Shown: positions 2,761 to 31,689 of the stretch, in pieces
Layout: each line of letters starts with the position of its first letter
Position numbering within the stretch: the first letter of the stretch is position 1
Source of the DNA: a virus
Length of the DNA: 37,482 bases
Virus record (IMG/VR): IMGVR_UViG_3300015360_000014
Location: 1 to 37,482 of that record
Reading direction: 5' to 3' (one strand)
Translations under genes and position numbers: made by a program
The notes under the pieces: generated by a model
The model's input: the letters and a program-made list of their open reading frames with translations, nothing else
Told to the model about the DNA's origin: nothing
The model's database searches: none

Positions 2761-3117
2761 CTAAATACTGCCTGTCAACAGTAATTTTACATCCTCTGCA
2801 CACCGCGCTACGCCTGAGATTCCACCTGCTTCTTTGATGATGCGTAAAAAGTTTTTTTGCTTGGGAGTCGGTTTTAACCCCGGCTTTTTTATTTCCACAG
2901 CCGCAATAACTGCAATTTTCTTCCCAACCATTTCCGGTGTTATAATTATTGATTTGTAGCCCACCAAGTCGCTGGCTCCGTCTGCATCTAACCCAGCCCT
3001 TACCTTGCGTTTCCCATCCAATGTAAGAAATAATCCACGATTGTTTCTAAACAGCCGTGCATTGTGTTTGCTGGCCTCCATACGGCACAGGGGTACTATT
3101 TCGCTAGATTCGCTCAT
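2761..3117 (-). CDS. VRR-NUC domain nuclease
   Basis: 118 residues, the usual length of a stand-alone phage VRR-NUC protein. The PD-(D/E)XK core is visible: Asp50 in GASDLVG, Glu75-x-Lys77 in AAVEIKKPG, then TPKQKNFL with Gln87 and the closing GGISGVARC. These enzymes cut branched or flap DNA; the stand-alone forms are thought to act as junction or flap nucleases in replication and recombination. The ATG overlaps the stop of the helicase gene (4 bases), so helicase and nuclease are made together. Confidence 0.9.
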   Translation of the reverse strand: MSESSEIVPLCRMEASKHNARLFRNNRGLFLTLDGKRKVRAGLDADGASDLVGYKSIIITPEMVGKKIAVIAAVEIKKPGLKPTPKQKNFLRIIKEAGGISGVARCAEDVKLLLTGSI

Positions 3118-4508
3118 GCCCGTTTTCCTTTCACGCGCATCATTTGGTAAACCCAGCTAGATTTATACCCACGCTCCTTGGCGATTGCCCGTAGCTGCTC
3201 AAGCGTCTTTGCCCTGCCCACCTCCTGCCGCGCATGTGTTTTGGCTTGCGTTAGGTCAACCTCCGACAGCTCACCCTCAACCGTATCTATCTCACGCGAC
3301 TCTATCGGGTAAACAAATCCGCACTCTGGACAGGTTGGGGCGGGTTTGTGGCATAGGTAGCAAATTTCGCATTGCCTGACAGCAATGGTTTTTTCGCTCT
3401 CTTTCCGACTGCGTTTTTCCGTATCCTCAAGCGTCCATTTTCGCTCGTCACAGGGCAAACCATGCTCTTGAAGATTGTTGGCGTGGTCGAATATGAGCGC
3501 GGGGTACGGCTTATTACGCAAAACCCGCCCCCATTTTTGCATCTGCAAAGCGAGCGATTTAGTTGGTCTAAGGTCGGAAACGCACTCAACGGTTACGTCC
3601 ATGCCAACCTGCGAGGCCAAGTCGAAGCCATAAGTGAGCAATTCACAATTCGTAAGCACCCGCAACTCTCTGTTGGCATAAGCCCTGATTATCCGCTCAC
3701 GCTCATTGTCCGGCGTTTCCCCGTCCATGTGCGCTGCGGGTATCCCTGCCTCATTGAAGCTCTCTGCTACCATCTGGCTGTGCTTTACGCTCACGCAATA
3801 GACTATGTTAAGCCTACCCATAGCCAGCTTCTTATAGTGCTCCACGGCATTGCCGATAAGCACCCTGTCCTGCTCCATGAAGCTCGCAAGCTGCCCCTTG
3901 GCATAGTCACCCGCCGATATTCCTATCGCGCTCAGGTCTGGGTGCGAAGGGGCATAGACTTTGTATTCACATAGCCGTTTATTATCTATCAGCCAGCGGA
4001 TAGACTCGCCATGCACCATCTTATCAAACCAGCAACCAAGCCCCTTTCCGCTCAATTTTTTCGGAGTTGCTCCTAAACCGATGATATATGCACCTCCGGC
4101 CTTGAGCCACTTAATCAGCTTATCCATGCCAGCGCCCCCAACGTGACACTCGTCAACAATAGCAAGGTCAGGTGCTTTATTTTGCGAGCGAGCAAGTAGC
4201 GTACCAAGTGAGCATATTTGGGTTTTGCATAAAAAATTAGGCGTATACCCCGCCGCTATAAATCCATGCTCTAAATTAAATTGGTCGTAAGTCACGGACA
4301 TCTGCCTGAGCAAGTCACGGCGCGGGACAATAAACCATGTGCGGCTACCCTTTGCCTGTGCGCGGCGTACCAGTTCGCCCGCCATTACCGACTTACCGGA
4401 GCCTGTCGCCCCTTGCATCAGTACGCTTCTGCTGCCGCTACGCATGGCCTGCGCGGTCTGTTCTATCAGCCTTTGTTGGTCATCAAATAAGGTTATCATA
4501 TTCGTCAT
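3114..4508 (-). CDS. SF2 DEAD/DEAH-type DNA helicase with C-terminal zinc ribbon
   Basis: 464 residues. Walker A is GATGSGKS (33-40), Walker B DECH (119-122), motif III region GATPKK (147-152), and motif VI is in QKWGRVLRNK in the C-terminal RecA lobe. A Cys-rich cluster (CEIC-YLC-CPEC) after the helicase core forms a probable zinc ribbon. This layout is typical of phage replication/repair helicases related to the UvrB/SSL2 group. The start overlaps the primase-helicase stop by 26 bases; the ATG at 4508 and one at 4499 are both possible. It probably unwinds branched or origin DNA alongside the VRR-NUC nuclease. Confidence 0.92.
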   Translation of the reverse strand: MTNMITLFDDQQRLIEQTAQAMRSGSRSVLMQGATGSGKSVMAGELVRRAQAKGSRTWFIVPRRDLLRQMSVTYDQFNLEHGFIAAGYTPNFLCKTQICSLGTLLARSQNKAPDLAIVDECHVGGAGMDKLIKWLKAGGAYIIGLGATPKKLSGKGLGCWFDKMVHGESIRWLIDNKRLCEYKVYAPSHPDLSAIGISAGDYAKGQLASFMEQDRVLIGNAVEHYKKLAMGRLNIVYCVSVKHSQMVAESFNEAGIPAAHMDGETPDNERERIIRAYANRELRVLTNCELLTYGFDLASQVGMDVTVECVSDLRPTKSLALQMQKWGRVLRNKPYPALIFDHANNLQEHGLPCDERKWTLEDTEKRSRKESEKTIAVRQCEICYLCHKPAPTCPECGFVYPIESREIDTVEGELSEVDLTQAKTHARQEVGRAKTLEQLRAIAKERGYKSSWVYQMMRVKGKRA

Positions 4509-7500
4509 TGATGAAATATTTTGCAGGTATTCTTGTGGCGTTTTGCTTGTCGCCAGCGGAGAAATAAACGCTAGATTTTTGCCCCGAATCAGGTAGCGAG
4601 GAAAGCGTCCTGTGCCAGTTCATTTCCCACTGTGTATTTTTAAGCAATCTACCTAAATTATGATTCCTATTGCCAATATCAACAAAGCCATCTTTAACCG
4701 CTATCGAGTACATACGCAGTGTACGGTCGGCAAAGTCCGTATTGATGCGGTCATTGTATTTATGGATAGCGGATATAAGCTCACCCACCGTATAGTCGGA
4801 GAGCGCCTCTTTAACGTGTCCGGCACGGATGATGCTGGTAGAAATGTGCCGCATCAGTCTTAGGTATTCCGGCTCTGCCGCAACCGCCGTATTCATCGTC
4901 CAGTCCTGCGCCGCGATCCATTCCTCCGCCTTAGCGTCTGCTATAACCTTATCGCTGCCAAGCAGGTAAAGCCCCGCCAACATCGGAGCAAGTTGATCGG
5001 CAAGCCGCGGGACGTTTAAAACTTTTCTAGCCCCGCGCCGGAATACTTCTATATTTTTAAGTAGAGTTGGCATGCTGGCAACCGTCCTTGCGAGCAGTCC
5101 GGCTTGAAATTCTGGTGTTATCGTTGTAGCTATCTCATCTAACAGCGCGTCATAATCTTCCTGAGCCGCACGCTTTCTGTTCTTTTTTAGCGTAAGCATT
5201 GAATAGCGCGACTCATCGGCAAAGGCAGTAATGCCCGGATTGATTGCCGAAAAGCAAATGCAGAATTGCGCCTTAAATGGTTTTTGCCCAAACTTTCCTA
5301 CCGTCGCGCCGCTTGATGCTTTCCGGGCAAGCTGCAAAACCCCCTCCATAGTAGAGCGCTGATTGGGTGTTTCGCTCTCGGCTTCGTCATATATAATAGG
5401 TCTGCCATCGTAGCCCATGAGCATCCGTATGCCTGGCTCGGTGGTTCCGCCATCAACATTTAGGGCAATGGCTCCGAGCGTAGGCTTGATGATGCGGTCT
5501 AATATGGTTGAGTTATGCGTAACCACAAAATTATCCGTGACATAAAGCCTGTCTGGGTGGTCAATCAGTATACACCTGCAATCATCTTCGCCATCAATCT
5601 CTATTTTCTTTATGTTTAGATATAAAGAATCTTGCCGGTCTTTCATTCTGATGTTTATATTATAGGCTAATCTTCCTTGTTTCCTCTCCCCCTTATATGT
5701 GTAGTGAGCGTGTTTTTTACTAGCTTTTGCGATACCCCCTAACGACCTTACAAGAAACACAACGTCATCACAGAGGCGTTTTGATACAGTGCAATAGGAT
5801 AATGAGCCGCCCTCACCTACATATCCATCTGTATCCATCAAGCCGCGCAGCATCTCCATGCGGGCTGACACCGAGGCACAAAGATAGTCTTTTGGAATAT
5901 ATTTATCATGAGATTTTCTGCCTAACATACCGAGTTCTTTTATAAGTGCGCGTGTGCGCCTCCCATACCTTGAAAGGTCGCCGAATCTAAACTGGTTCGG
6001 CGCAGTCCTTTTTTCAAAAATGCCCATGTAATCAGGGAGAAGCGTTTTTATTCTTTCGACTATTTCAGGGTCAAAACAAGTAAACCCCGTTGTTCCCGAA
6101 TTCTCATTTGCAAAATGACCGTCACCAATCATGGCTCCTAGAACATATGGGTGAAGCGGCAATTTTTGCTTGTTGTTGCGCTCCATATCAACGGCGGCGG
6201 TGAGTGGAATTGCAAGGGACGCGCTCGCCCTTGTTCCCCTGTTTAGTACGTCAATTATTTGCCCAGTGGTTCTTATCCGCCATTCATTGGCGACTCTCAC
6301 TTTCCAGAGATGGTCTGTTGTTGCATAAGCTGTTCTTCCGTCAGAGAATGTTATTTTGTAAACAACTTGCCTCCCCTGCGGGAAAACACCTAGTATTTTT
6401 GCGAAGGAATTATCCGGCGTTGTCACAGTATCACCAACAGCAAGATCACCCATTCTCCTAAAGCCACTTGGTGTCAAAACTAGAGCCGAATGTGGCTGTG
6501 CCTTCCCAGAATCAGCCTCGCCCGTAATCCATAGGTGCGGTCGCCACGGTAAAATGCTGCATACTGGTGCTATCACTAACCAGCCAGCCAACAGCGAGCC
6601 AGATAGCTTCGTTTCCCATGTCGGCATCTCACATATTTTGCGTAGTTTAATGGCTTCTTTTGACCTTAACGGCGTGAGCGAAGGTCTTAACAGCCTCGGC
6701 GCGGCGATATAAACGTAATTACCTAACACGTCTTTCGTGTCGGTCGGCACACCGTCCACATATATTTCATTGCCACAGTGCAGCATTTTCCGGCCAGCAT
6801 CCATCCACGCCCCACACCCGCGCACTTTGTTTTCCTCGGTAAATACCCCGCGCTTATGGGCAATGCGGAATAGAGCATTAGCGGCTATTGCCGGTATTTG
6901 TGTCGCTGATATTTCCGTATGCCCACCGCCGAAAGAACGCTGCCACTGGTTTGTACTAGCAAGCTGCAATAGGTTGTTTAGCGTATGCGACGCTCCTGCA
7001 AGGGCAAATATCTGGCGCTTCTCGAACGGGAAGTAATAATAGGTTTCTTGGTTGTAACCCAAAACCCTGAACGGCAACCCTAAGTCGCCGCCCACTTCTT
7101 GTTGCTCTTCTTCTTCGTAGTCACCCGCCGAGGCTTGCACACCTACATCAGCCAGAGGCTCAAAGGATACCTCGGCGGGGACATCACCTTGAGCGATAAG
7201 ACTACGCTCTATTCGCTCAAGGATTTGTGAGCGGACTACAGCAATTCCCGCGCTTTGGTGCAGGTCACAGTAATCCGTGCATTTCGTATCTTCATTATTA
7301 ACAAATTCCGGCCAGATTGCAAAACCATTTACCTTGGCAGCGGCAATCTTTCCTTTATCAATTCCGGTGTTCTTATCCTTGAACGCATCGTTGTCGCACA
7401 GCAGCCAGATACGCGCCTCAGGATATTTACCGCGTAACGCCTCCGCTACTGATAGCAGGTTGCCAGCATCAAACGCGGCAAACACGGCATAATCAGGCAC

Positions 7501-8121
7501 AGCGGCATGTACGCTCGCGGCAGTACTTATGCCCTCGCAGATTAGGATCGTGTCGTGGGAGGTAGCTGGGAACGGATAAAAGCACCCCTGCTTTCTGCCG
7601 CCCTTCAAATATAATTTTTCACCCTGCTCGTCTATGGTCTGCAAGCTGGATATTTTACCGTTTATACCAAACATCGGGATAAGCAGCTTGTCACCCTCTA
7701 CGCGCAACCCCTCTATCTCAATCCCCTTGCGCTTCAAGTACGGGTGCGTGTCTATTGGTAGCTCCGCCTCTGCCCAGTGCGTCTTTGCAGTCACCGCCGC
7801 CTGCATTTCGGTTTCCTTGCGCTCGGTTTCCCTCTCGGCTTTCTCACTGGCCTGACGTGTCGCCCATGCCTCTTTTTCTTCTTTGCTGTATTCCTTCGCG
7901 GCCTTCGTGGTAAAAGTGTGCGTCACGCCTTCGCGGTATGAGCCATAGTTGCCAACGGCAAAGTCACCGTCAATTTTCAGGCGGTAGTAAATAATCTTTT
8001 TGCTGGGTTTCTCACCTACGGCATGTGAGTTATGCCACTTGTCATCGGCAACTATATCAAGCGCCGGATTAATACCATGTGACTGCATGGCCTCGGTAAA
8101 CGCTTGGATTATGTTTTGCAT
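4483..8121 (-). CDS. Phage primase-helicase (Toprim + P-loop ATPase) containing an intein
   Basis: 1212 residues from the ATG at 8121, chosen because AGGGG lies 6 bases upstream; the open frame runs 9 codons further to a GTG without a site. A Toprim-like primase domain lies near residues 190-270: Glu196 in ICEG, and Asp243 and Asp245 in LCDND. Further on is a P-loop ATPase of the phage/plasmid replicative helicase type: Walker A GEADSGKST, Walker B PIIYDEAE, and CFSAIN as a likely sensor. Walker A is split after its Lys by a 330-residue intein (541-870); without it the protein is about 882 residues. It should prime and unwind phage DNA for host polymerase. It is the core of the leftward operon, overlapping the SF2 helicase gene. 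Confidence 0.9.
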   Translation of the reverse strand: MQNIIQAFTEAMQSHGINPALDIVADDKWHNSHAVGEKPSKKIIYYRLKIDGDFAVGNYGSYREGVTHTFTTKAAKEYSKEEKEAWATRQASEKAERETERKETEMQAAVTAKTHWAEAELPIDTHPYLKRKGIEIEGLRVEGDKLLIPMFGINGKISSLQTIDEQGEKLYLKGGRKQGCFYPFPATSHDTILICEGISTAASVHAAVPDYAVFAAFDAGNLLSVAEALRGKYPEARIWLLCDNDAFKDKNTGIDKGKIAAAKVNGFAIWPEFVNNEDTKCTDYCDLHQSAGIAVVRSQILERIERSLIAQGDVPAEVSFEPLADVGVQASAGDYEEEEQQEVGGDLGLPFRVLGYNQETYYYFPFEKRQIFALAGASHTLNNLLQLASTNQWQRSFGGGHTEISATQIPAIAANALFRIAHKRGVFTEENKVRGCGAWMDAGRKMLHCGNEIYVDGVPTDTKDVLGNYVYIAAPRLLRPSLTPLRSKEAIKLRKICEMPTWETKLSGSLLAGWLVIAPVCSILPWRPHLWITGEADSGKAQPHSALVLTPSGFRRMGDLAVGDTVTTPDNSFAKILGVFPQGRQVVYKITFSDGRTAYATTDHLWKVRVANEWRIRTTGQIIDVLNRGTRASASLAIPLTAAVDMERNNKQKLPLHPYVLGAMIGDGHFANENSGTTGFTCFDPEIVERIKTLLPDYMGIFEKRTAPNQFRFGDLSRYGRRTRALIKELGMLGRKSHDKYIPKDYLCASVSARMEMLRGLMDTDGYVGEGGSLSYCTVSKRLCDDVVFLVRSLGGIAKASKKHAHYTYKGERKQGRLAYNINIRMKDRQDSLYLNIKKIEIDGEDDCRCILIDHPDRLYVTDNFVVTHNSTILDRIIKPTLGAIALNVDGGTTEPGIRMLMGYDGRPIIYDEAESETPNQRSTMEGVLQLARKASSGATVGKFGQKPFKAQFCICFSAINPGITAFADESRYSMLTLKKNRKRAAQEDYDALLDEIATTITPEFQAGLLARTVASMPTLLKNIEVFRRGARKVLNVPRLADQLAPMLAGLYLLGSDKVIADAKAEEWIAAQDWTMNTAVAAEPEYLRLMRHISTSIIRAGHVKEALSDYTVGELISAIHKYNDRINTDFADRTLRMYSIAVKDGFVDIGNRNHNLGRLLKNTQWEMNWHRTLSSLPDSGQKSSVYFSAGDKQNATRIPAKYFINDEYDNLI
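5512..6501 (-). mobile_element. Class 3 intein with LAGLIDADG homing endonuclease domain
   Basis: 330 residues inserted in frame between Lys and Ser of Walker A (GEADSGK | ST). The N-terminal splicing block has the typical ALVLTPSGFRRMGDLAVGD, but residue 1 is Ala, not Cys or Ser. Class 3 signature residues are present: Trp66 (TTDHLW), Cys310 in block F (RCILIDHPD) and Thr328 in block G (VVTHN, ending in Asn330); the next extein residue is Ser. Two LAGLIDADG motifs are visible, VLGAMIGDGH (120-129) and LRGLMDTDGYV (218-228), each with the metal-binding Asp, so the endonuclease looks intact. Removal restores a perfect GxxxxGKST loop. Confidence 0.93.
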
Positions 8122-8200
8122 AAAAGCCCCTGAATATTTGATGTGCACCCAGAGGCTAATACTTTTTTATAGCGCGTGTCAAATTAAAAAATACGGATAG

Positions 8201-8359: not shown

Positions 8360-8535
8360 GCTGTTTTCTCCAATTCTTGTTTCTCCAATTCTTGCAATGC
8401 CCATAAAATATCTCGTGCCGTTGCTTCTGTTTCGGCCTCTGTTTTCCCGTTTTTCGGCGAATTAATCAGTTTTGCCATTAGGTATGCAGCCCTTTTCAAG
8501 TCCAGTATGTTGAGGTGGGTTTCTGTGTCGGTCAT
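8344..8535 (-). CDS. Small hypothetical helical protein, 63 aa
   Basis: AAGGGA lies 6 bases before the ATG at 8535. The product is acidic and helical, rich in Glu, Ala and Lys. Its end contains QELEK twice in a row, encoded by an exact 15-base tandem duplication (8365-8394). No domain recognised. It sits 3 bases after the lipoprotein gene, in the run of small early genes ahead of the replication set. Confidence 0.65.
   Translation of the reverse strand: MTDTETHLNILDLKRAAYLMAKLINSPKNGKTEAETEATARDILWALQELEKQELEKTACQNS
8365..8394. repeat. 15-bp exact tandem duplication
   Basis: Two perfect copies of TTTCTCCAATTCTTG (plus strand) lie end to end. They keep the frame of the 63-residue gene (QELEK twice) and both carry the GGAG that serves as ribosome site for the next gene at 8359. 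The exactness points to a recent slippage event. Confidence 0.85.
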
Positions 8536-8538
8536 AAA

Positions 8539-8901
8539 TTATCCCTTCTGGTTAATATCAAAAGCGCACTTCTTATCCGTAGCAATTATTACGAGGTTAT
8601 TGTATCGCTGACGCAGGGCGTTTACCTCTATCTGTTCAGACTGGCTCAAGTCCATGAAGAACCACGGCACAAGAAAGATTGCCCCAGCCACACCAAGAGC
8701 AACATTTTTACCTGTCTTTTCAGTCTCAGGGATTAGGCGAATAATGTCGCCTTGGATATTTGTCATCTCCATTTCTAAAGCCTTGCAGCTTTTCCGATCA
8801 TCACCGTATTGATTGGTCATGATCGGGTTTGCTGCTCGGCCTCCGCAAGCTGTAACAATGCAGAGTATCGTAAGCATGGCCGTGGTTTTGGTGGTTTTCA
8901 T
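8539..8901 (-). CDS. Small phage lipoprotein with a second membrane segment
   Basis: 120 residues from the ATG at 8901, which has GGAAGGATTGAG upstream; the open frame begins 5 codons earlier without a site. The N-terminus is a lipoprotein signal: Lys near the start, hydrophobic stretch MLTILCIV, lipobox VTAC with the lipidated Cys near residue 19. A second hydrophobic segment (VALGVAGAIFLVPWFFM) lies in the middle, followed by a helical segment and one late Cys. I do not recognise the family; membrane-altering, superinfection-related or other envelope roles are possible but not shown. Confidence 0.7.
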   Translation of the reverse strand: MKTTKTTAMLTILCIVTACGGRAANPIMTNQYGDDRKSCKALEMEMTNIQGDIIRLIPETEKTGKNVALGVAGAIFLVPWFFMDLSQSEQIEVNALRQRYNNLVIIATDKKCAFDINQKG

Positions 8902-26184: not shown

Positions 26185-27862
26185 GCAATATACACGGTTA
26201 CTGACTGTTGCGCGTGACGTGCCGACTCTGACTGACCCCAACGCAATAAGCAACGCAGGGGCATTGGCTCGCGCGGGGGCTAAACTTGCGGATTTTGCCG
26301 CAGATAGGTTTGATGCTCATGAGAAAGCAAACGAGGCTACCGCGCTTAATGAAGCCAGTATATCATTCCAAAAAGACCGCATTATAAAAACATCTGAAGC
26401 CCGTAAATCCAGAGAAAGCAACCCATTCGGCTTTGCGAAGCAAATGGAGGCAGACAATATCAAACTCGCCGGAGAATACGGAAATACTCTTTCATCGGAG
26501 AGAGCAAAGAAAGCATGGCGTGAGACGGTAGCGCAGCAAAATTTGCAGTATTTCAAAAGCGACTTTACATGGGAGCAGCAAAAGGCAGTGGATGTGTACG
26601 CTGCCCGTACCGAAAAAGCTGCAAATGACTTAGAGGAAATGGCCTATATCGCCGGACGCAATGGCGAGTCCCCAGATGGCATTATGAAAAACATCGGCGC
26701 AACCGTTGTGTCTGTGTCCACGTATCAGCCAAACAAAGACATGCTTTCTGAGGTAAACAAAAAGATGACAGCCAATGCAAGCATGGGCTATCTGCGCGGC
26801 TTTTCCAAAGCCGACCCTGTTAAGGCTTTTGAGTATATCAATAGCGGCGCACTTGATAAAAAACTTGGTGCGGAAAAATCAGATAAACTAAAATCAGCTA
26901 TGGCCAAGGAAGCACTGCAAGCGCTCGCAGCCGAGGACATTGATTCGGCGCGAAAATTTCTTGAAACGAATAAGATGTTTTCCCCAAAAGAAAAAGCAAA
27001 GTTCAAAGTTGCGCTTGATAAGGAATTGGAGTCCCAAAATACACAAAAGGCAACGGCATCTGCGGTTTCCACCTCTGATGCTCTTATTGGTGCAATAAAT
27101 GGCGGAACGGCGGCGGGTGTGATGGGTGACGACACTATATCTGATGACCAAAAAAAGATGATTGTTGGCTTAATGTCTGGCGACCCACAGGTAGTGGCAG
27201 AGGCGGCTGGTATTTCTGAGGCGGCTTCAGATGGCTATGAGGGGGTAAACCTCTATTCAATGGTATCTGAGATTGATGCAGTACAGGCCGAATTTGAATC
27301 AGGCAAGCAATCAAACGCGACCATCAACAAGTCAGTACAGCAGTTAAACACATTGGCTCAGGTTGCGACAATGGCTCATGCTTTTAATAAGGGCAATCGC
27401 GGCGAGGGACTAACAAAAGCCGAGTATCAGTCAGTAATAAAAAAAGTAAAATCACTTCAAGAAACATTGTATGACGGAGCCGATAAGAAGGCTCCCGCCT
27501 TTTTCCAGCGCCATGCGTTTGATGAAATATTTAAAGAGGTAGACCACCTTGGCTCGTCTAAAGAGGAAAGAGCCAGATTGCTTGGGGAAGCCCTATCAAT
27601 AGCCGAGCGCCAAGGCATTGATGTCTTTGACAGAAAGGGTGATGATGAGGCTGCAAAAATAAAGCCCGTTATGGACGAATTGACAGCCAGAAGGAAACAC
27701 GCGCCTGGAATCCGCTCATCCGCGCCAAAAACCAACATTGTTATTAAGGACGGTGAGAAAATAAATGTCGGTGGAGGAGAAGATAAAACTCCTGCCGATA
27801 GAAGCGTAAATACCCAAATTATTAAGAGAACCTATAACCCAAATACACGGGCTTTTGAGTAA
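26171..27862 (+). CDS. Internal virion protein, T7 gp15-like position
   Basis: 563 residues from the ATG at 26171, which overlaps the previous gene by 14 bases; the open frame begins 108 bases upstream inside that gene, but the product clearly starts MAKIEQYTRLLTVARDVPTL. The protein is largely helical, Ala/Lys/Glu-rich, without enzymatic motifs. By order and size it corresponds to the gp15-type ejection protein that builds the periplasmic conduit. The stop overlaps the next ATG (TAATG). Confidence 0.75.
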   Translation: MAKIEQYTRLLTVARDVPTLTDPNAISNAGALARAGAKLADFAADRFDAHEKANEATALNEASISFQKDRIIKTSEARKSRESNPFGFAKQMEADNIKLAGEYGNTLSSERAKKAWRETVAQQNLQYFKSDFTWEQQKAVDVYAARTEKAANDLEEMAYIAGRNGESPDGIMKNIGATVVSVSTYQPNKDMLSEVNKKMTANASMGYLRGFSKADPVKAFEYINSGALDKKLGAEKSDKLKSAMAKEALQALAAEDIDSARKFLETNKMFSPKEKAKFKVALDKELESQNTQKATASAVSTSDALIGAINGGTAAGVMGDDTISDDQKKMIVGLMSGDPQVVAEAAGISEAASDGYEGVNLYSMVSEIDAVQAEFESGKQSNATINKSVQQLNTLAQVATMAHAFNKGNRGEGLTKAEYQSVIKKVKSLQETLYDGADKKAPAFFQRHAFDEIFKEVDHLGSSKEERARLLGEALSIAERQGIDVFDRKGDDEAAKIKPVMDELTARRKHAPGIRSSAPKTNIVIKDGEKINVGGGEDKTPADRSVNTQIIKRTYNPNTRAFE

Positions 27863-30800
27863 TGCCAGCCATTTTCATAAAGGAATATAATACGGAGGTC
27901 ACTTTCCCCGAAGGCATGTCAGATGAGGACATGCAATCGGCGCTGGAAAGGGAGTACCCGCCACTTACCAATGGGAAGCAGCCGCGCGAGAACATCTACA
28001 ACGCCGATAAAGACGTTGTAATTAATGCACCGATTGGTGCATCGGCGGCGCAGATTGATTACCATGATGAGGTGGATAATCTTGGGGCAAATAAGGGCGA
28101 TTATTTCGGCTACGCAAAATCCGAGGTTCCTAGGGACGCTAGCTTTTATGACAAAGCATTTGAAGTTTTGGCGTTGCCAACAGAAGATATAGTTTTACAA
28201 ACAAATCGTGCCGTTACTGCGGGGGCAAGGTATTTGCGTGAGCTTGGTGTTACCAACGAAGATTCTATAACCAAATTTATAGACAAGATGTCATTAAGCA
28301 ACGAGAAGCTCAATCAATCGGTGCAGCAAAAACGCGAAAGGGCTGGTGGTGGGTTTGGTACTGATGTTTATGTCGGAGCCACCCAATTGCCATACTACGC
28401 AGCGCTAGGAAGCGCGCGAGGCGCGGCTGTTATTTATGGTCTTATCGGCGGGGCAAATTCAGAGCGAATATACCAAGAGGCTATTGCAGCAAACCCCGAC
28501 GATGAAAACGCACTTGCTAAGGCATCGGCGGCAGGCTTCACATCTGCGGCAGTTGAGGCATCTTTAGGACATTTGTTTTTTAAGAATGTAATGCCAAAGT
28601 TGGGTGAGAGATTTATTGGCAGAGTAACTAAATTGGCTTTAATCGGTGGAGCCGAAGAATCGGGCGCTAGTGTCAGCGAGGACGTAGTTACAATTGCTAC
28701 CGATATTAGGGATAAAAACGCAGAAGCTGTAATATCGGATGCTCTTTACAGCTTTGCTGTTGGTGCGTTTATTGGAACAGGAGCGACAAGTATCGCGGAA
28801 ATTCCCAATATTCAGGAAAGGCTACGGCAGGCAGGCGTTAAAAACGTAGAGCAAGTTGCGGAGGCGATTAAAGTAGATGGCGAGAAGTTTGGCTTAGAGT
28901 TAGAAAAAGCTGTAAATGACGATATATCCCTTCTTAATGATGACCCATCGACAATTGATGCCATATCAAAAGCTATGGATAATTTGGCTAGTGAAAATTA
29001 CGAAGCTATAGCCGCGGACATGCAGGGTCTTGGGTTTGAGGATGGTCAAATAAAAAGCACGATTGAAAATGTGAAGAAGATGGTGGCTCGAACTAAAGAT
29101 GTTCCAACACTTGTCGGCAAGGGGGATGTATTGCTGGCGGAGTCGCTTGCTCTTGAGGATAAGCAGACAACGAAATTGCAGGATGCTCTTGACCTGTGGA
29201 AAGAAATAACCAATCCAATCCGCGCCGTAACCAGCTTCACCAAAAAACAAATAAAGGAAACGCAAACTCAGTTGGTGGAGTTTATCAATCAATCTGATTT
29301 GGCGCACGAGGATAAGGGAAAGTTTTTAGTGGCACTGCGCGATACTCAAACATCGGCGCAATTGCTAAAAAAAATTGATGATATAGAGGCACGAATTAAC
29401 GGGCTTATTGACGCAAGCCAGCGCCGTAATTTGGTTTCCAGTATAGAAAACAAAATATCAAAGGTAAGAAAAAGCAATGTTATTGCCGTTGATTTTGCAA
29501 AAAAGGTTGAGATGCTGTTTAACGAAATTGACCTACAGAAAAGACAGCCGGGAACGATTAAGTCTTTGCAGGATACTCTCGATTTCATGCAGAAAAACCC
29601 AGATGCCAATATCCCAAATGATGTTTTGGCTAAATTACAAATACTTAATAGGCGCAAAATTGAGGATATTAGTACAGCAGAGCTTAGGTCAATCGCAGCA
29701 GAGATGGATAACCTTATACAACAGGGTAAAACCAAGCTGCGTCTTATGGATGCAAAAAAAGAGAAGCTAAAGCAGCAGAGGCTTGTCGAAATACAAAAAG
29801 ATTCAGTCCCCATCGAATCGCGTGACGCTGTGGATGGCGGTATTTTTGACAAGCTAACCACGCAGCAAAAAAACCAAAATAGTTACACGGCTGTGTTAAA
29901 TAGACTGCGTGGCCTTGGCCTCGCTACCAACCCGATGGACGTATTTTTTGATATGCTGGATGGGTCAAAATCTTACCTTGGCGCTAATTATAGAATATTC
30001 AAAAAAACCGTTGATGTTGGCTATTCTAAATACCTCGATCTAAAAAACGACGTGACCAAGGATGTAAAGAGCCTTGATAATAAGCTCAATCTTGATTCCT
30101 TCAATTATAGGCGCATCGGTGTTTTTGCTATATCCCAACAAGAGGGGGGTATGAAAAAGCTAGAGGACACTGGCTTTAATGCCGAAGAAGTAAGATCACT
30201 CCGGCTTACCAAAGAAGAAATGCAGATGTACAAATTAATGCGCTCTCATCTTGATGGTGTATTGCCTGCCGTTCAAGCGGTGATGCGTGTTGTTTACAAT
30301 AAAGATGTTGCCCAGATCAAAAATTACTTTTCGTTTCTTACCGACCACGATGCAATGAACGGTGTGGAGATACAGGATCAAATCGGCGATACCGTAGAAT
30401 TTGCAGCAAATAAAAAAAATGCTGAGCAGGGCTTCACCAAGGAGCGTACACTTGGAAAACAGGCCGTAAGGGTGGATGCCTTGCAGGTTTATCTTCGCCA
30501 CATGGATAACGCTGCTTATTTAATTGAAATGGGTGGGCATATAAAATCATTATCCGACCTTGCCAGTGACCCAGAATATAAAAAAGCAGTCGGCGATATG
30601 GGACAAGAGTCCGTTGCGGATTGGCTCAATGTGCTTGCTAGGAATGGGAGAATAAAGGGAGCCAATAGCCAGTCAGAGAGGTTTATTAATACGCTTAGGA
30701 CGAACACCGGAATTGCGATGCTTGGCTTTAAGCTATCTACCATTCTAGTCCAGCCTACTGCGCTTGCAGATGGCGCTGCGTTGGTAGGCGGCGGGTATGT

Positions 30801-31689
30801 TCTTGAAGCGATTTCGCAAGTTGCCCTTAAGCCGGAGCTGAGAAAATTCCTCATGGCCAATATGCCGGAGATTCGTCATCGGGTGGGTGACGATCCGTCA
30901 TACTCAGATTTGGGGTCGAATAAAGTGCTGAGGAGTGTCGCGGAGGCTGGCTTCTGGGCGCTAAAGAGGATCGATTTGCTTAGCGCTTCTGCTGTTGCCT
31001 CTGGTGCTTATACCAAATTTGTTGAGGAGAAAGGCGGCAAGGTTGATTTTAGTAAACCAGACCCAGATGCTATAGCCTATGCGCAGCGCATGATGCGCCG
31101 CACACAGTCGTCAGCGTTTGCAAAGGATGTCGCCCCAATTCTAAATCAGGGCAAGCTAACTGGGAATATTTCGGTTGATAAGCTCATAACGCAATTCCAG
31201 TCTTTTATGCTTAACCGCTGGTCGCTTATTAAGCACGATATGTATCAGAATGGCATTAAAGGCAACACCCAGCAGTCAGCCAATATCGCCACATGGATGA
31301 TTATAGGTACTATGTCGGCGGTAGGGTTGCGTAGGCTGAGTAAAGAAATAGTTGGCGCGATGTTTGGGGATGAGCCAGAGGATTGGGAGAACCGCATAAA
31401 GCAGGAGTTGGTGAACGAAGCTCTTGGGACAATCCCTGCGGTTTCTCAGCTTGCATCAATGTGGAATTATAGCTCCGTACCTGTGCCAGCAATCGGGGCA
31501 ATGTGGAAAATATCAACTGAATTAAAACTTGCTGGCCAATCCAAAGACCCAGCCAAAAAAGCGAGCCATAACGCCCAAGCCGCCGTCCTTATGACTGGGG
31601 TTGTCTTAGGTGTGCCCGGAGCGCTTCAGGCGCAGCAAATCATAAGCGCTGCCTCAAAGAAAGATAAAAAGAAGAAACCCGCCGATTGA
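27862..31689 (+). CDS. Large internal virion / ejection protein, T7 gp16-like position
   Basis: 1275 residues. The N-terminus (FIKEYNTEVTFPEGMSDED) carries the short beta-helical motif (F-P-[ED]-G-x-S-x-E-D) often starting giant internal proteins of podoviruses. Hydrophobic segments are seen around 175-200 and 290-310. A long helical, Lys/Asp/Gln-rich middle follows, and then a C-terminal region (TNTGIAMLGFKLSTILVQPT and onward) of the type conserved in gp16-like ejection proteins. I see no clear transglycosylase or peptidase motif, unlike T7 gp16. It probably enters the cell to pull DNA in. Confidence 0.75.
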   Translation: MPAIFIKEYNTEVTFPEGMSDEDMQSALEREYPPLTNGKQPRENIYNADKDVVINAPIGASAAQIDYHDEVDNLGANKGDYFGYAKSEVPRDASFYDKAFEVLALPTEDIVLQTNRAVTAGARYLRELGVTNEDSITKFIDKMSLSNEKLNQSVQQKRERAGGGFGTDVYVGATQLPYYAALGSARGAAVIYGLIGGANSERIYQEAIAANPDDENALAKASAAGFTSAAVEASLGHLFFKNVMPKLGERFIGRVTKLALIGGAEESGASVSEDVVTIATDIRDKNAEAVISDALYSFAVGAFIGTGATSIAEIPNIQERLRQAGVKNVEQVAEAIKVDGEKFGLELEKAVNDDISLLNDDPSTIDAISKAMDNLASENYEAIAADMQGLGFEDGQIKSTIENVKKMVARTKDVPTLVGKGDVLLAESLALEDKQTTKLQDALDLWKEITNPIRAVTSFTKKQIKETQTQLVEFINQSDLAHEDKGKFLVALRDTQTSAQLLKKIDDIEARINGLIDASQRRNLVSSIENKISKVRKSNVIAVDFAKKVEMLFNEIDLQKRQPGTIKSLQDTLDFMQKNPDANIPNDVLAKLQILNRRKIEDISTAELRSIAAEMDNLIQQGKTKLRLMDAKKEKLKQQRLVEIQKDSVPIESRDAVDGGIFDKLTTQQKNQNSYTAVLNRLRGLGLATNPMDVFFDMLDGSKSYLGANYRIFKKTVDVGYSKYLDLKNDVTKDVKSLDNKLNLDSFNYRRIGVFAISQQEGGMKKLEDTGFNAEEVRSLRLTKEEMQMYKLMRSHLDGVLPAVQAVMRVVYNKDVAQIKNYFSFLTDHDAMNGVEIQDQIGDTVEFAANKKNAEQGFTKERTLGKQAVRVDALQVYLRHMDNAAYLIEMGGHIKSLSDLASDPEYKKAVGDMGQESVADWLNVLARNGRIKGANSQSERFINTLRTNTGIAMLGFKLSTILVQPTALADGAALVGGGYVLEAISQVALKPELRKFLMANMPEIRHRVGDDPSYSDLGSNKVLRSVAEAGFWALKRIDLLSASAVASGAYTKFVEEKGGKVDFSKPDPDAIAYAQRMMRRTQSSAFAKDVAPILNQGKLTGNISVDKLITQFQSFMLNRWSLIKHDMYQNGIKGNTQQSANIATWMIIGTMSAVGLRRLSKEIVGAMFGDEPEDWENRIKQELVNEALGTIPAVSQLASMWNYSSVPVPAIGAMWKISTELKLAGQSKDPAKKASHNAQAAVLMTGVVLGVPGALQAQQIISAASKKDKKKKPAD

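What the first reader, a model, noticed from the sequence alone, without database searches (positions are those of the whole stretch)
5512..6501. Class 3 intein splits the Walker A loop of the phage primase-helicase
The intein begins with Ala instead of Cys/Ser and carries Trp66, Cys310 and Thr328 in the places of the class 3 (WCT) signature, so splicing should start from the internal block F Cys. Insertion is between Lys and Ser of GxxxxGKST, so the ATPase cannot work until splicing. Two LAGLIDADG motifs with both Asp present suggest active homing. Class 3 inteins are the rarest class, and a P-loop site in a Toprim primase-helicase makes it a useful example.
Basis: partly seen in the sequence, partly recalled or inferred. 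Interest (0 to 1): 0.8.

Follow-up and report, generated by a model that had tools for sequence, protein, structure and literature searches.

The report
Phage class 3 intein in primase-helicase
A self-removing protein segment (intein) sits inside the ATP-binding loop of a phage DNA-replication enzyme; it is real and described correctly, but hundreds of similar arrangements are already in public phage genomes, so it is an ordinary new example.

Summary
ORF 4483-8148(-) is a Toprim-type phage primase-helicase in which residues 550-879 (window 5512-6501) are a 330-aa intein between Lys and Ser of the Walker A motif GEADSGK|ST. Four intein-free phage primases, and the part of a syntenic IMG/VR relative that could be aligned across the site, lack this segment and read straight through the P-loop. 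Ala1, His64, Trp66, Cys310, Thr328, His329 and Asn330 fall on class 3 (WCT) positions of the solved mycobacterial DnaB1 inteins. The splicing domain groups with class 3 inteins (100/100 support) apart from class 1, and the model (pLDDT 93) is Hint plus LAGLIDADG. The class 3 mechanism is well supported; splicing and homing are untested. What fails is the claim of rarity. The intein matches 781 phage records, 77 of 80 nearest IMG/VR relatives sit directly after a Lys, a 2020 survey counted 1701 class 3 inteins, and class 2 is rarer. Lys|Ser/Thr in a P-loop is called the classic site. The nearest relative (L030) has the same site in a homologous helicase with a different N-terminal module. New member of a known kind; low interest. 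Side finding: a candidate naturally split class 3 intein in a Zoogloeaceae MAG.

The parts
4483..8148 (-). precursor ORF, 1221 aa from the GTG (probably 1212 aa from ATG at 8121): primase-helicase interrupted by an intein
   Evidence: Toprim_3 and LAGLIDADG hits; PHROG 35358 DNA primase E 6.5e-127; start by alignment with L026
6502..8148 (-). N-extein: Toprim primase module and the start of the helicase, ending in Walker A GEADSGK
   Evidence: Toprim_3 at residues 201-276; alignment with intein-free homologues
5512..6501 (-). intein, 330 aa, AQPHSALV...VTHN
   Evidence: exact gap in four homologues; 781 phage records match; AlphaFold model pLDDT 93.3 matching inteins in PDB
6295..6330 (-). splicing block B: residues 58-69 AYATTDHLWKVR region, with His64 (B:10) and Trp66 (B:12)
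   Evidence: alignment to 6bs8 and 6rix; His64 and Trp66 invariant in A2 and A5
6118..6141 (-). first LAGLIDADG motif LGAMIGDG (residues 121-128, Asp127)
   Evidence: Asp in 75 of 80 relatives
5824..5850 (-). second LAGLIDADG motif LRGLMDTDG (residues 218-226, Asp225)
   Evidence: Asp225 in 80 of 80 relatives
5560..5583 (-). splicing block F: residues 307-314 DCRCILID, Cys310 (F:4) the predicted first nucleophile
   Evidence: aligned with Cys118 of Msm DnaBi1 (PMC6195587); Cys in 80 of 80 relatives
5512..5532 (-). splicing block G: residues 324-330 NFVVTHN (Thr328, His329, Asn330)
   Evidence: THN invariant in A2 and A5
4483..5511 (-). C-extein: starts with Walker A Ser (+1 nucleophile), STILD..., rest of the helicase
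3114..4508 (-). neighbouring DEAD/ResIII-type helicase overlapping the precursor gene's 3' end; anchors synteny with L026

Best explanation
The 330-aa segment is a full-length class 3 intein with a LAGLIDADG homing endonuclease, lodged at the Walker A Lys|Ser site of a phage Toprim primase-helicase. Predicted splicing: Cys310, helped by His64 and Thr328, attacks the Lys-Ala1 bond to give a block F branched thioester; the Walker A Ser (+1) takes over the N-extein; Asn330 cyclises; the acyl shift leaves an intact GEADSGKST loop and an active enzyme. The precursor cannot form a normal P-loop, so ATPase activity should wait for splicing. The endonuclease is predicted to cut intein-free alleles of the same P-loop, so that the intein is copied into them. 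Shown here: boundaries, intein-free homologues, WCT signature, class 3 grouping, fold. Inferred: splicing chemistry, endonuclease activity, inactivity of the precursor.
For: Exact 330-residue gap at 550-879 in four intein-free primases 30-38% identical to the mature protein; the empty site is also present in syntenic L026. W66, C310 and T328 align with the Trp67, Cys118 and Thr137 of Msm DnaBi1 given in PMC6195587. Cys310, Thr328 and His64 are conserved in 80/80 of the nearest IMG/VR relatives and Trp66 in 77/80; +1 is Ser/Thr in 80/80. The splicing-domain tree puts it among 31 class 3 rows, split from 5 class 1 phage inteins at 100/100. The model (pLDDT 93.3) matches PI-SceI, TliVMA and the class 3 DnaB inteins 6bs8, 6rix and 6riy. 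Intein GC3 is 0.41 against 0.54 in the extein (0 of 10000 random extein codon samples as low), consistent with acquisition.
Against: No splicing, cleavage or homing data. Position B:7 is Thr (TTDH), as in class 1 inteins; this is a minority state among relatives (8 of 80). The intein is short (330 aa; only one of the compared relatives is as short) and lacks a stretch of about 19 residues found in its relatives between the second endonuclease half and block F, so endonuclease activity is uncertain.
Confidence: 0.95

Rival explanations
1. Class 2-like splicing: with no nucleophile at position 1, the +1 Ser attacks the N-junction directly and Cys310 is dispensable.
For: Ala1 and a +1 nucleophile are shared with class 2 inteins; PMC5222942 notes that class 3-signature inteins could in principle use either route.
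Against: The complete WCT triplet and grouping with class 3; three class 3-signature mini-inteins tested in PMC5222942 absolutely needed Cys F:4; class 2 was known only from KlbA (PMC3196547).
Confidence: 0.02
2. Decayed intein: it no longer splices, so the primase-helicase gene is dead or needs help from another phage, as for the Arth_1007 pseudogene intein.
For: A precedent exists (PMC3196547); the intein is shorter than its relatives.
Against: All catalytic positions are intact, unlike the Arth_1007 intein, which lost His B:10 and Cys F:4; the reading frame is open throughout; the model has no low-confidence segment.
Confidence: 0.03
3. The intein splices but its endonuclease is inactive, so it is fixed rather than mobile.
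For: A stretch of about 19 residues is missing before block F relative to relatives.
Against: Both motif Asp residues and both LAGLIDADG helices are kept; both Pfam endonuclease models score above their curated cut-offs.
Confidence: 0.25
4. A normal inserted domain of this primase family rather than an intein.
For: None found.
Against: All intein-free homologues are continuous through the P-loop; the same element sits in terminases, SNF2 helicases, DnaB-like and other P-loop proteins.
Confidence: 0.003

Closest known systems
Class 3 P-loop intein of mycobacterial DnaB (Msm DnaBi1, PDB 6bs8; Mch DnaB1, 6rix/6riy)
   Same: Ala1, WCT triplet, insertion in the P-loop with the P-loop Ser as +1 nucleophile (PMC6195587)
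   Different: those are mini-inteins without endonuclease, in DnaB; B:7 is Asp there and Thr here
IMG/VR intein in L030 (UViG_3300034073_002909)
   Same: 54-58% identical intein, same AQPHSA start, same site in a homologous helicase domain
   Different: N-terminal module has no Toprim hit and matches other PHROG primase/helicase profiles; about 19 extra residues before block F
Phage class 3 P-loop inteins (TaPaz TerL, N1M2 TerL, YC primase-helicase, PhiPA3 SNF2 helicase and others)
   Same: AQP start, WCT, LAGLIDADG, insertion after the P-loop Lys, about 35-40% identity
   Different: host proteins are terminases and other helicases
Mycobacteriophage TerL1-a inteins and the 'classic' P-loop site (PMC5050341)
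   Same: insertion between the invariant Lys and Thr of Walker A
   Different: host protein is the terminase; class of TerL1-a itself was not checked here
Class 1 phage P-loop inteins (Salmonella vB_SenS-Ent2 helicase, Klebsiella JD001 helicase)
   Same: P-loop insertion, LAGLIDADG, THN end
   Different: begin with Cys, lack Trp B:12 and Cys F:4, separate branch in the tree

Membership tests
Class 3 inteins | no Cys/Ser/Thr at position 1 | tested here: met
   Ala1, junction fixed by intein-free homologues
Class 3 inteins | Trp B:12, Cys F:4, Thr G:5 | tested here: met
   W66, C310, T328 by alignment to 6bs8/6rix, A2 and A5
Class 3 inteins | His B:10, His G:6, Asn G:7, +1 Cys/Ser/Thr | tested here: met
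   H64, H329, N330, Ser880 of the precursor
Class 3 inteins | common descent with other class 3 inteins | tested here: met
   31 class 3 rows on one side of a 100/100 branch against 5 class 1 rows; the tree is midpoint-rooted, so this shows a split rather than a rooted clade
Class 3 inteins | splicing absolutely dependent on Cys F:4 through a block F branched intermediate | not testable with these tools
   needs a bench splicing assay
Inteins (Hint fold) | Hint splicing domain | tested here: met
   AlphaFold model matches PI-SceI, TliVMA and DnaB inteins in PDB
LAGLIDADG homing endonucleases | two LAGLIDADG motifs with acidic residues | tested here: met
   LGAMIGDG and LRGLMDTDG; PF14528 and PF05204 above cut-off
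LAGLIDADG homing endonucleases | site-specific cleavage of the empty allele | not testable with these tools
   bench assay needed
Class 1 inteins | Cys/Ser nucleophile at position 1 | tested here: not met
   Ala1
Toprim phage primase | Toprim domain and homology to phage DNA primases | tested here: met
   PF13362 E 2.3e-8; PHROG 35358 E 6.5e-127

The most novel reading that the evidence does not exclude
Splicing of this intein is conditional and gates phage replication: Cys308 lies two residues before the catalytic Cys310 (CxC, in 20 of 80 relatives), so oxidation could block splicing and hold the primase-helicase inactive, as a different Cys pair does in Msm DnaBi1 (PMC6195587).
Probability: 0.06. 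Interest if true: 0.5.

Novelty: new member of a known kind. Interest (0 to 1): 0.2.

Why it matters
It adds one well-formed example to a large phage family of P-loop class 3 inteins. Together with L030 it gives a pair in which related inteins (54-58% identity) sit at the same site of helicase domains that are themselves only 30-39% identical and carry different N-terminal modules, which is useful for studying spread between phages. It does not change what is known about inteins.

Tried and rejected
Single-protein scans of viral contigs with the intein and with the precursor found no relatives, because the degenerate patterns were too specific; alignment queries worked. Considered and rejected: a normal inserted domain, a class 1 intein (Ala1), and rarity as the point of interest. 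The TOPRIM intein of mycobacteriophages (PMC5050341) is a different site: the paper places it at the TOPRIM active site, not the P-loop. The class 3 origin paper (Tori and Perler 2011, PMC3133030) is not held, so its statements were taken only from papers that cite it. No tRNA genes in the window.

Full report
Observation. The real start is probably ATG 8121 rather than the GTG, because the syntenic homologue L026 begins at that point. Pfam finds Toprim_3 in the N-extein and LAGLIDADG_3 and Hom_end in the insert; PHROGs give DNA primase at E 6.5e-127.

Boundaries. Four phage primases without the insert (Microcystis phage Mwe-JY13, Aeromonas phage ST4, Pararheinheimera phage KLER1-1, Bdellovibrio phage phi1422), 30-38% identical to the mature protein, each lack exactly residues 550-879 in the alignment, and their P-loops read GKSGAGK|STV, GAAGSGK|STM, GPSGSGK|SWV and GERATGK|STL. 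The IMG/VR contig L026, with the same primase-helicase gene order, also has an uninterrupted GESQAGKSTILEE; its primase ORF has a frame break further downstream, so only the part across the site was aligned. Joining the window's own flanks gives GEADSGKST.

Class. PDB sequence matches are gp41-1 and the class 3 DnaB1 inteins 6bs8, 6rix and 6riy. The residue alignment to 6bs8 puts W66, C310 and T328-H-N on the Trp67, Cys118 and Thr137-His-Asn of Msm DnaBi1 described in PMC6195587. In nine phage relatives A1, H64, W66, C310, T328, H329 and N330 are invariant. Among the 80 nearest IMG/VR relatives Cys, Thr and His are present in all, Trp in 77, the residue before the intein is Lys in 77 (Gly-Lys in 68), and +1 is Ser or Thr in all. 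A splicing-domain tree puts 31 class 3 inteins, the window included, on one side of a 100/100 branch and five class 1 phage inteins on the other; it is midpoint-rooted. The structure model (pLDDT 93.3) matches full-length LAGLIDADG inteins and the class 3 DnaB inteins. One departure: B:7 is Thr, not the Cys or Asp that are commoner here; 8 of 80 relatives share it.

Mobility. Both LAGLIDADG motifs keep their Asp. The intein is lower in GC (0.444) and GC3 (0.41) than the extein (0.502 and 0.54); no 990-nt extein window and none of 10000 random extein codon samples is as low. The nearest intein, L030, is 54% identical by BLAST and 58% in the pairwise alignment, and sits at the same Lys|Thr site of a homologous helicase domain (39% identity before the site, 30% after), but that protein has no Toprim hit and a different N-terminal module. 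The intein being more alike than its host suggests movement between homologous sites, though stronger constraint on the intein would look similar. About 19 residues found in relatives between the endonuclease and block F are missing here, so endonuclease activity should not be assumed.

How common. The intein matches 781 of 50,697 phage records at E <= 1e-5, 732 of them over at least 80% of its length; some of the weaker matches are class 1 inteins, such as Salmonella vB_SenS-Ent2. PMC5050341 calls insertion between the P-loop Lys and Thr classic; PMC7891396 counted 1701 class 3 inteins, 82.5% with LAGLIDADG. Class 2, known only from KlbA when PMC3196547 was written, is rarer. None of the best-covered homologues of this primase in the phage collection was annotated or aligned with an intein at this site, so this Toprim primase subfamily may be new as a host protein, but the site and kind are not.

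Verdict. A correctly recognised class 3 intein, new member of a known kind, interest 0.2. Splicing, homing and precursor inactivity are inferred.

Side finding. One genome-contig hit, L124 (Zoogloeaceae MAG), carries an N-terminal splicing half at the end of a 1770-aa phage polyvalent-type protein (PBECR3 and ddrB-ParB domains) and a C-terminal half with CIRI...PTHN|T about 3 kb downstream on the same strand, in its own ORF with an ATG near 8398. This looks like a naturally split class 3 intein, of which PMC7891396 reported the first; a literature search found no further natural one. No phage record matches the joined exteins, so an uninterrupted homologue has not been shown, and the two halves have not been shown to belong to one protein.

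Noticed in passing
L124 5001-5321 and about 8398-8541 (JAITRP010000105.1, Zoogloeaceae MAG): Candidate naturally split class 3 intein: N-half (AQPLSS...DHLW) ending a 1770-aa polyvalent phage-type protein, and a C-half (QCIRIAHPSRLYVTNDLIPTHN|TYGS) about 3 kb downstream in a separate ORF on the same strand. L125, from a second Zoogloeaceae MAG, has a similar N-half and stop before its contig ends. Natural split class 3 inteins are reported as very rare (PMC7891396).
   Followed up: partly
L101 (match 3001-4032); also L051 and L062: Inteins with the full Trp/Cys/Thr class 3 signature that begin with Cys (L101) or Ser (L051, L062) instead of Ala: possible intermediates between class 1 and class 3, testable by mutating residue 1 versus the block F Cys.
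   Followed up: no
window 5512-6501 residue 61; 80 IMG/VR loci: Position B:7, described as Asp (DxxH) in the class 3 Msm DnaBi1 intein, is mostly Cys in this set (33 of 80), then Asp, Gly, Ser and Thr.
   Followed up: partly
L030 1489-5085: Same P-loop intein site in a homologous helicase whose N-terminal module has no Toprim match: swapping of N-terminal modules around an intein-bearing helicase domain.
   Followed up: partly
window 27862-31689 (+): 1275-aa protein in the structural region with only weak family matches (PHROG 9880, unknown function).
   Followed up: no
window 12149-33500 (+): Structural block with terminase, head-tail connector (PF12236) and capsid (PF19821) genes on the + strand; the replication genes lie on the - strand. 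The window is a whole virus record of 37,482 bases, host unknown.
   Followed up: no
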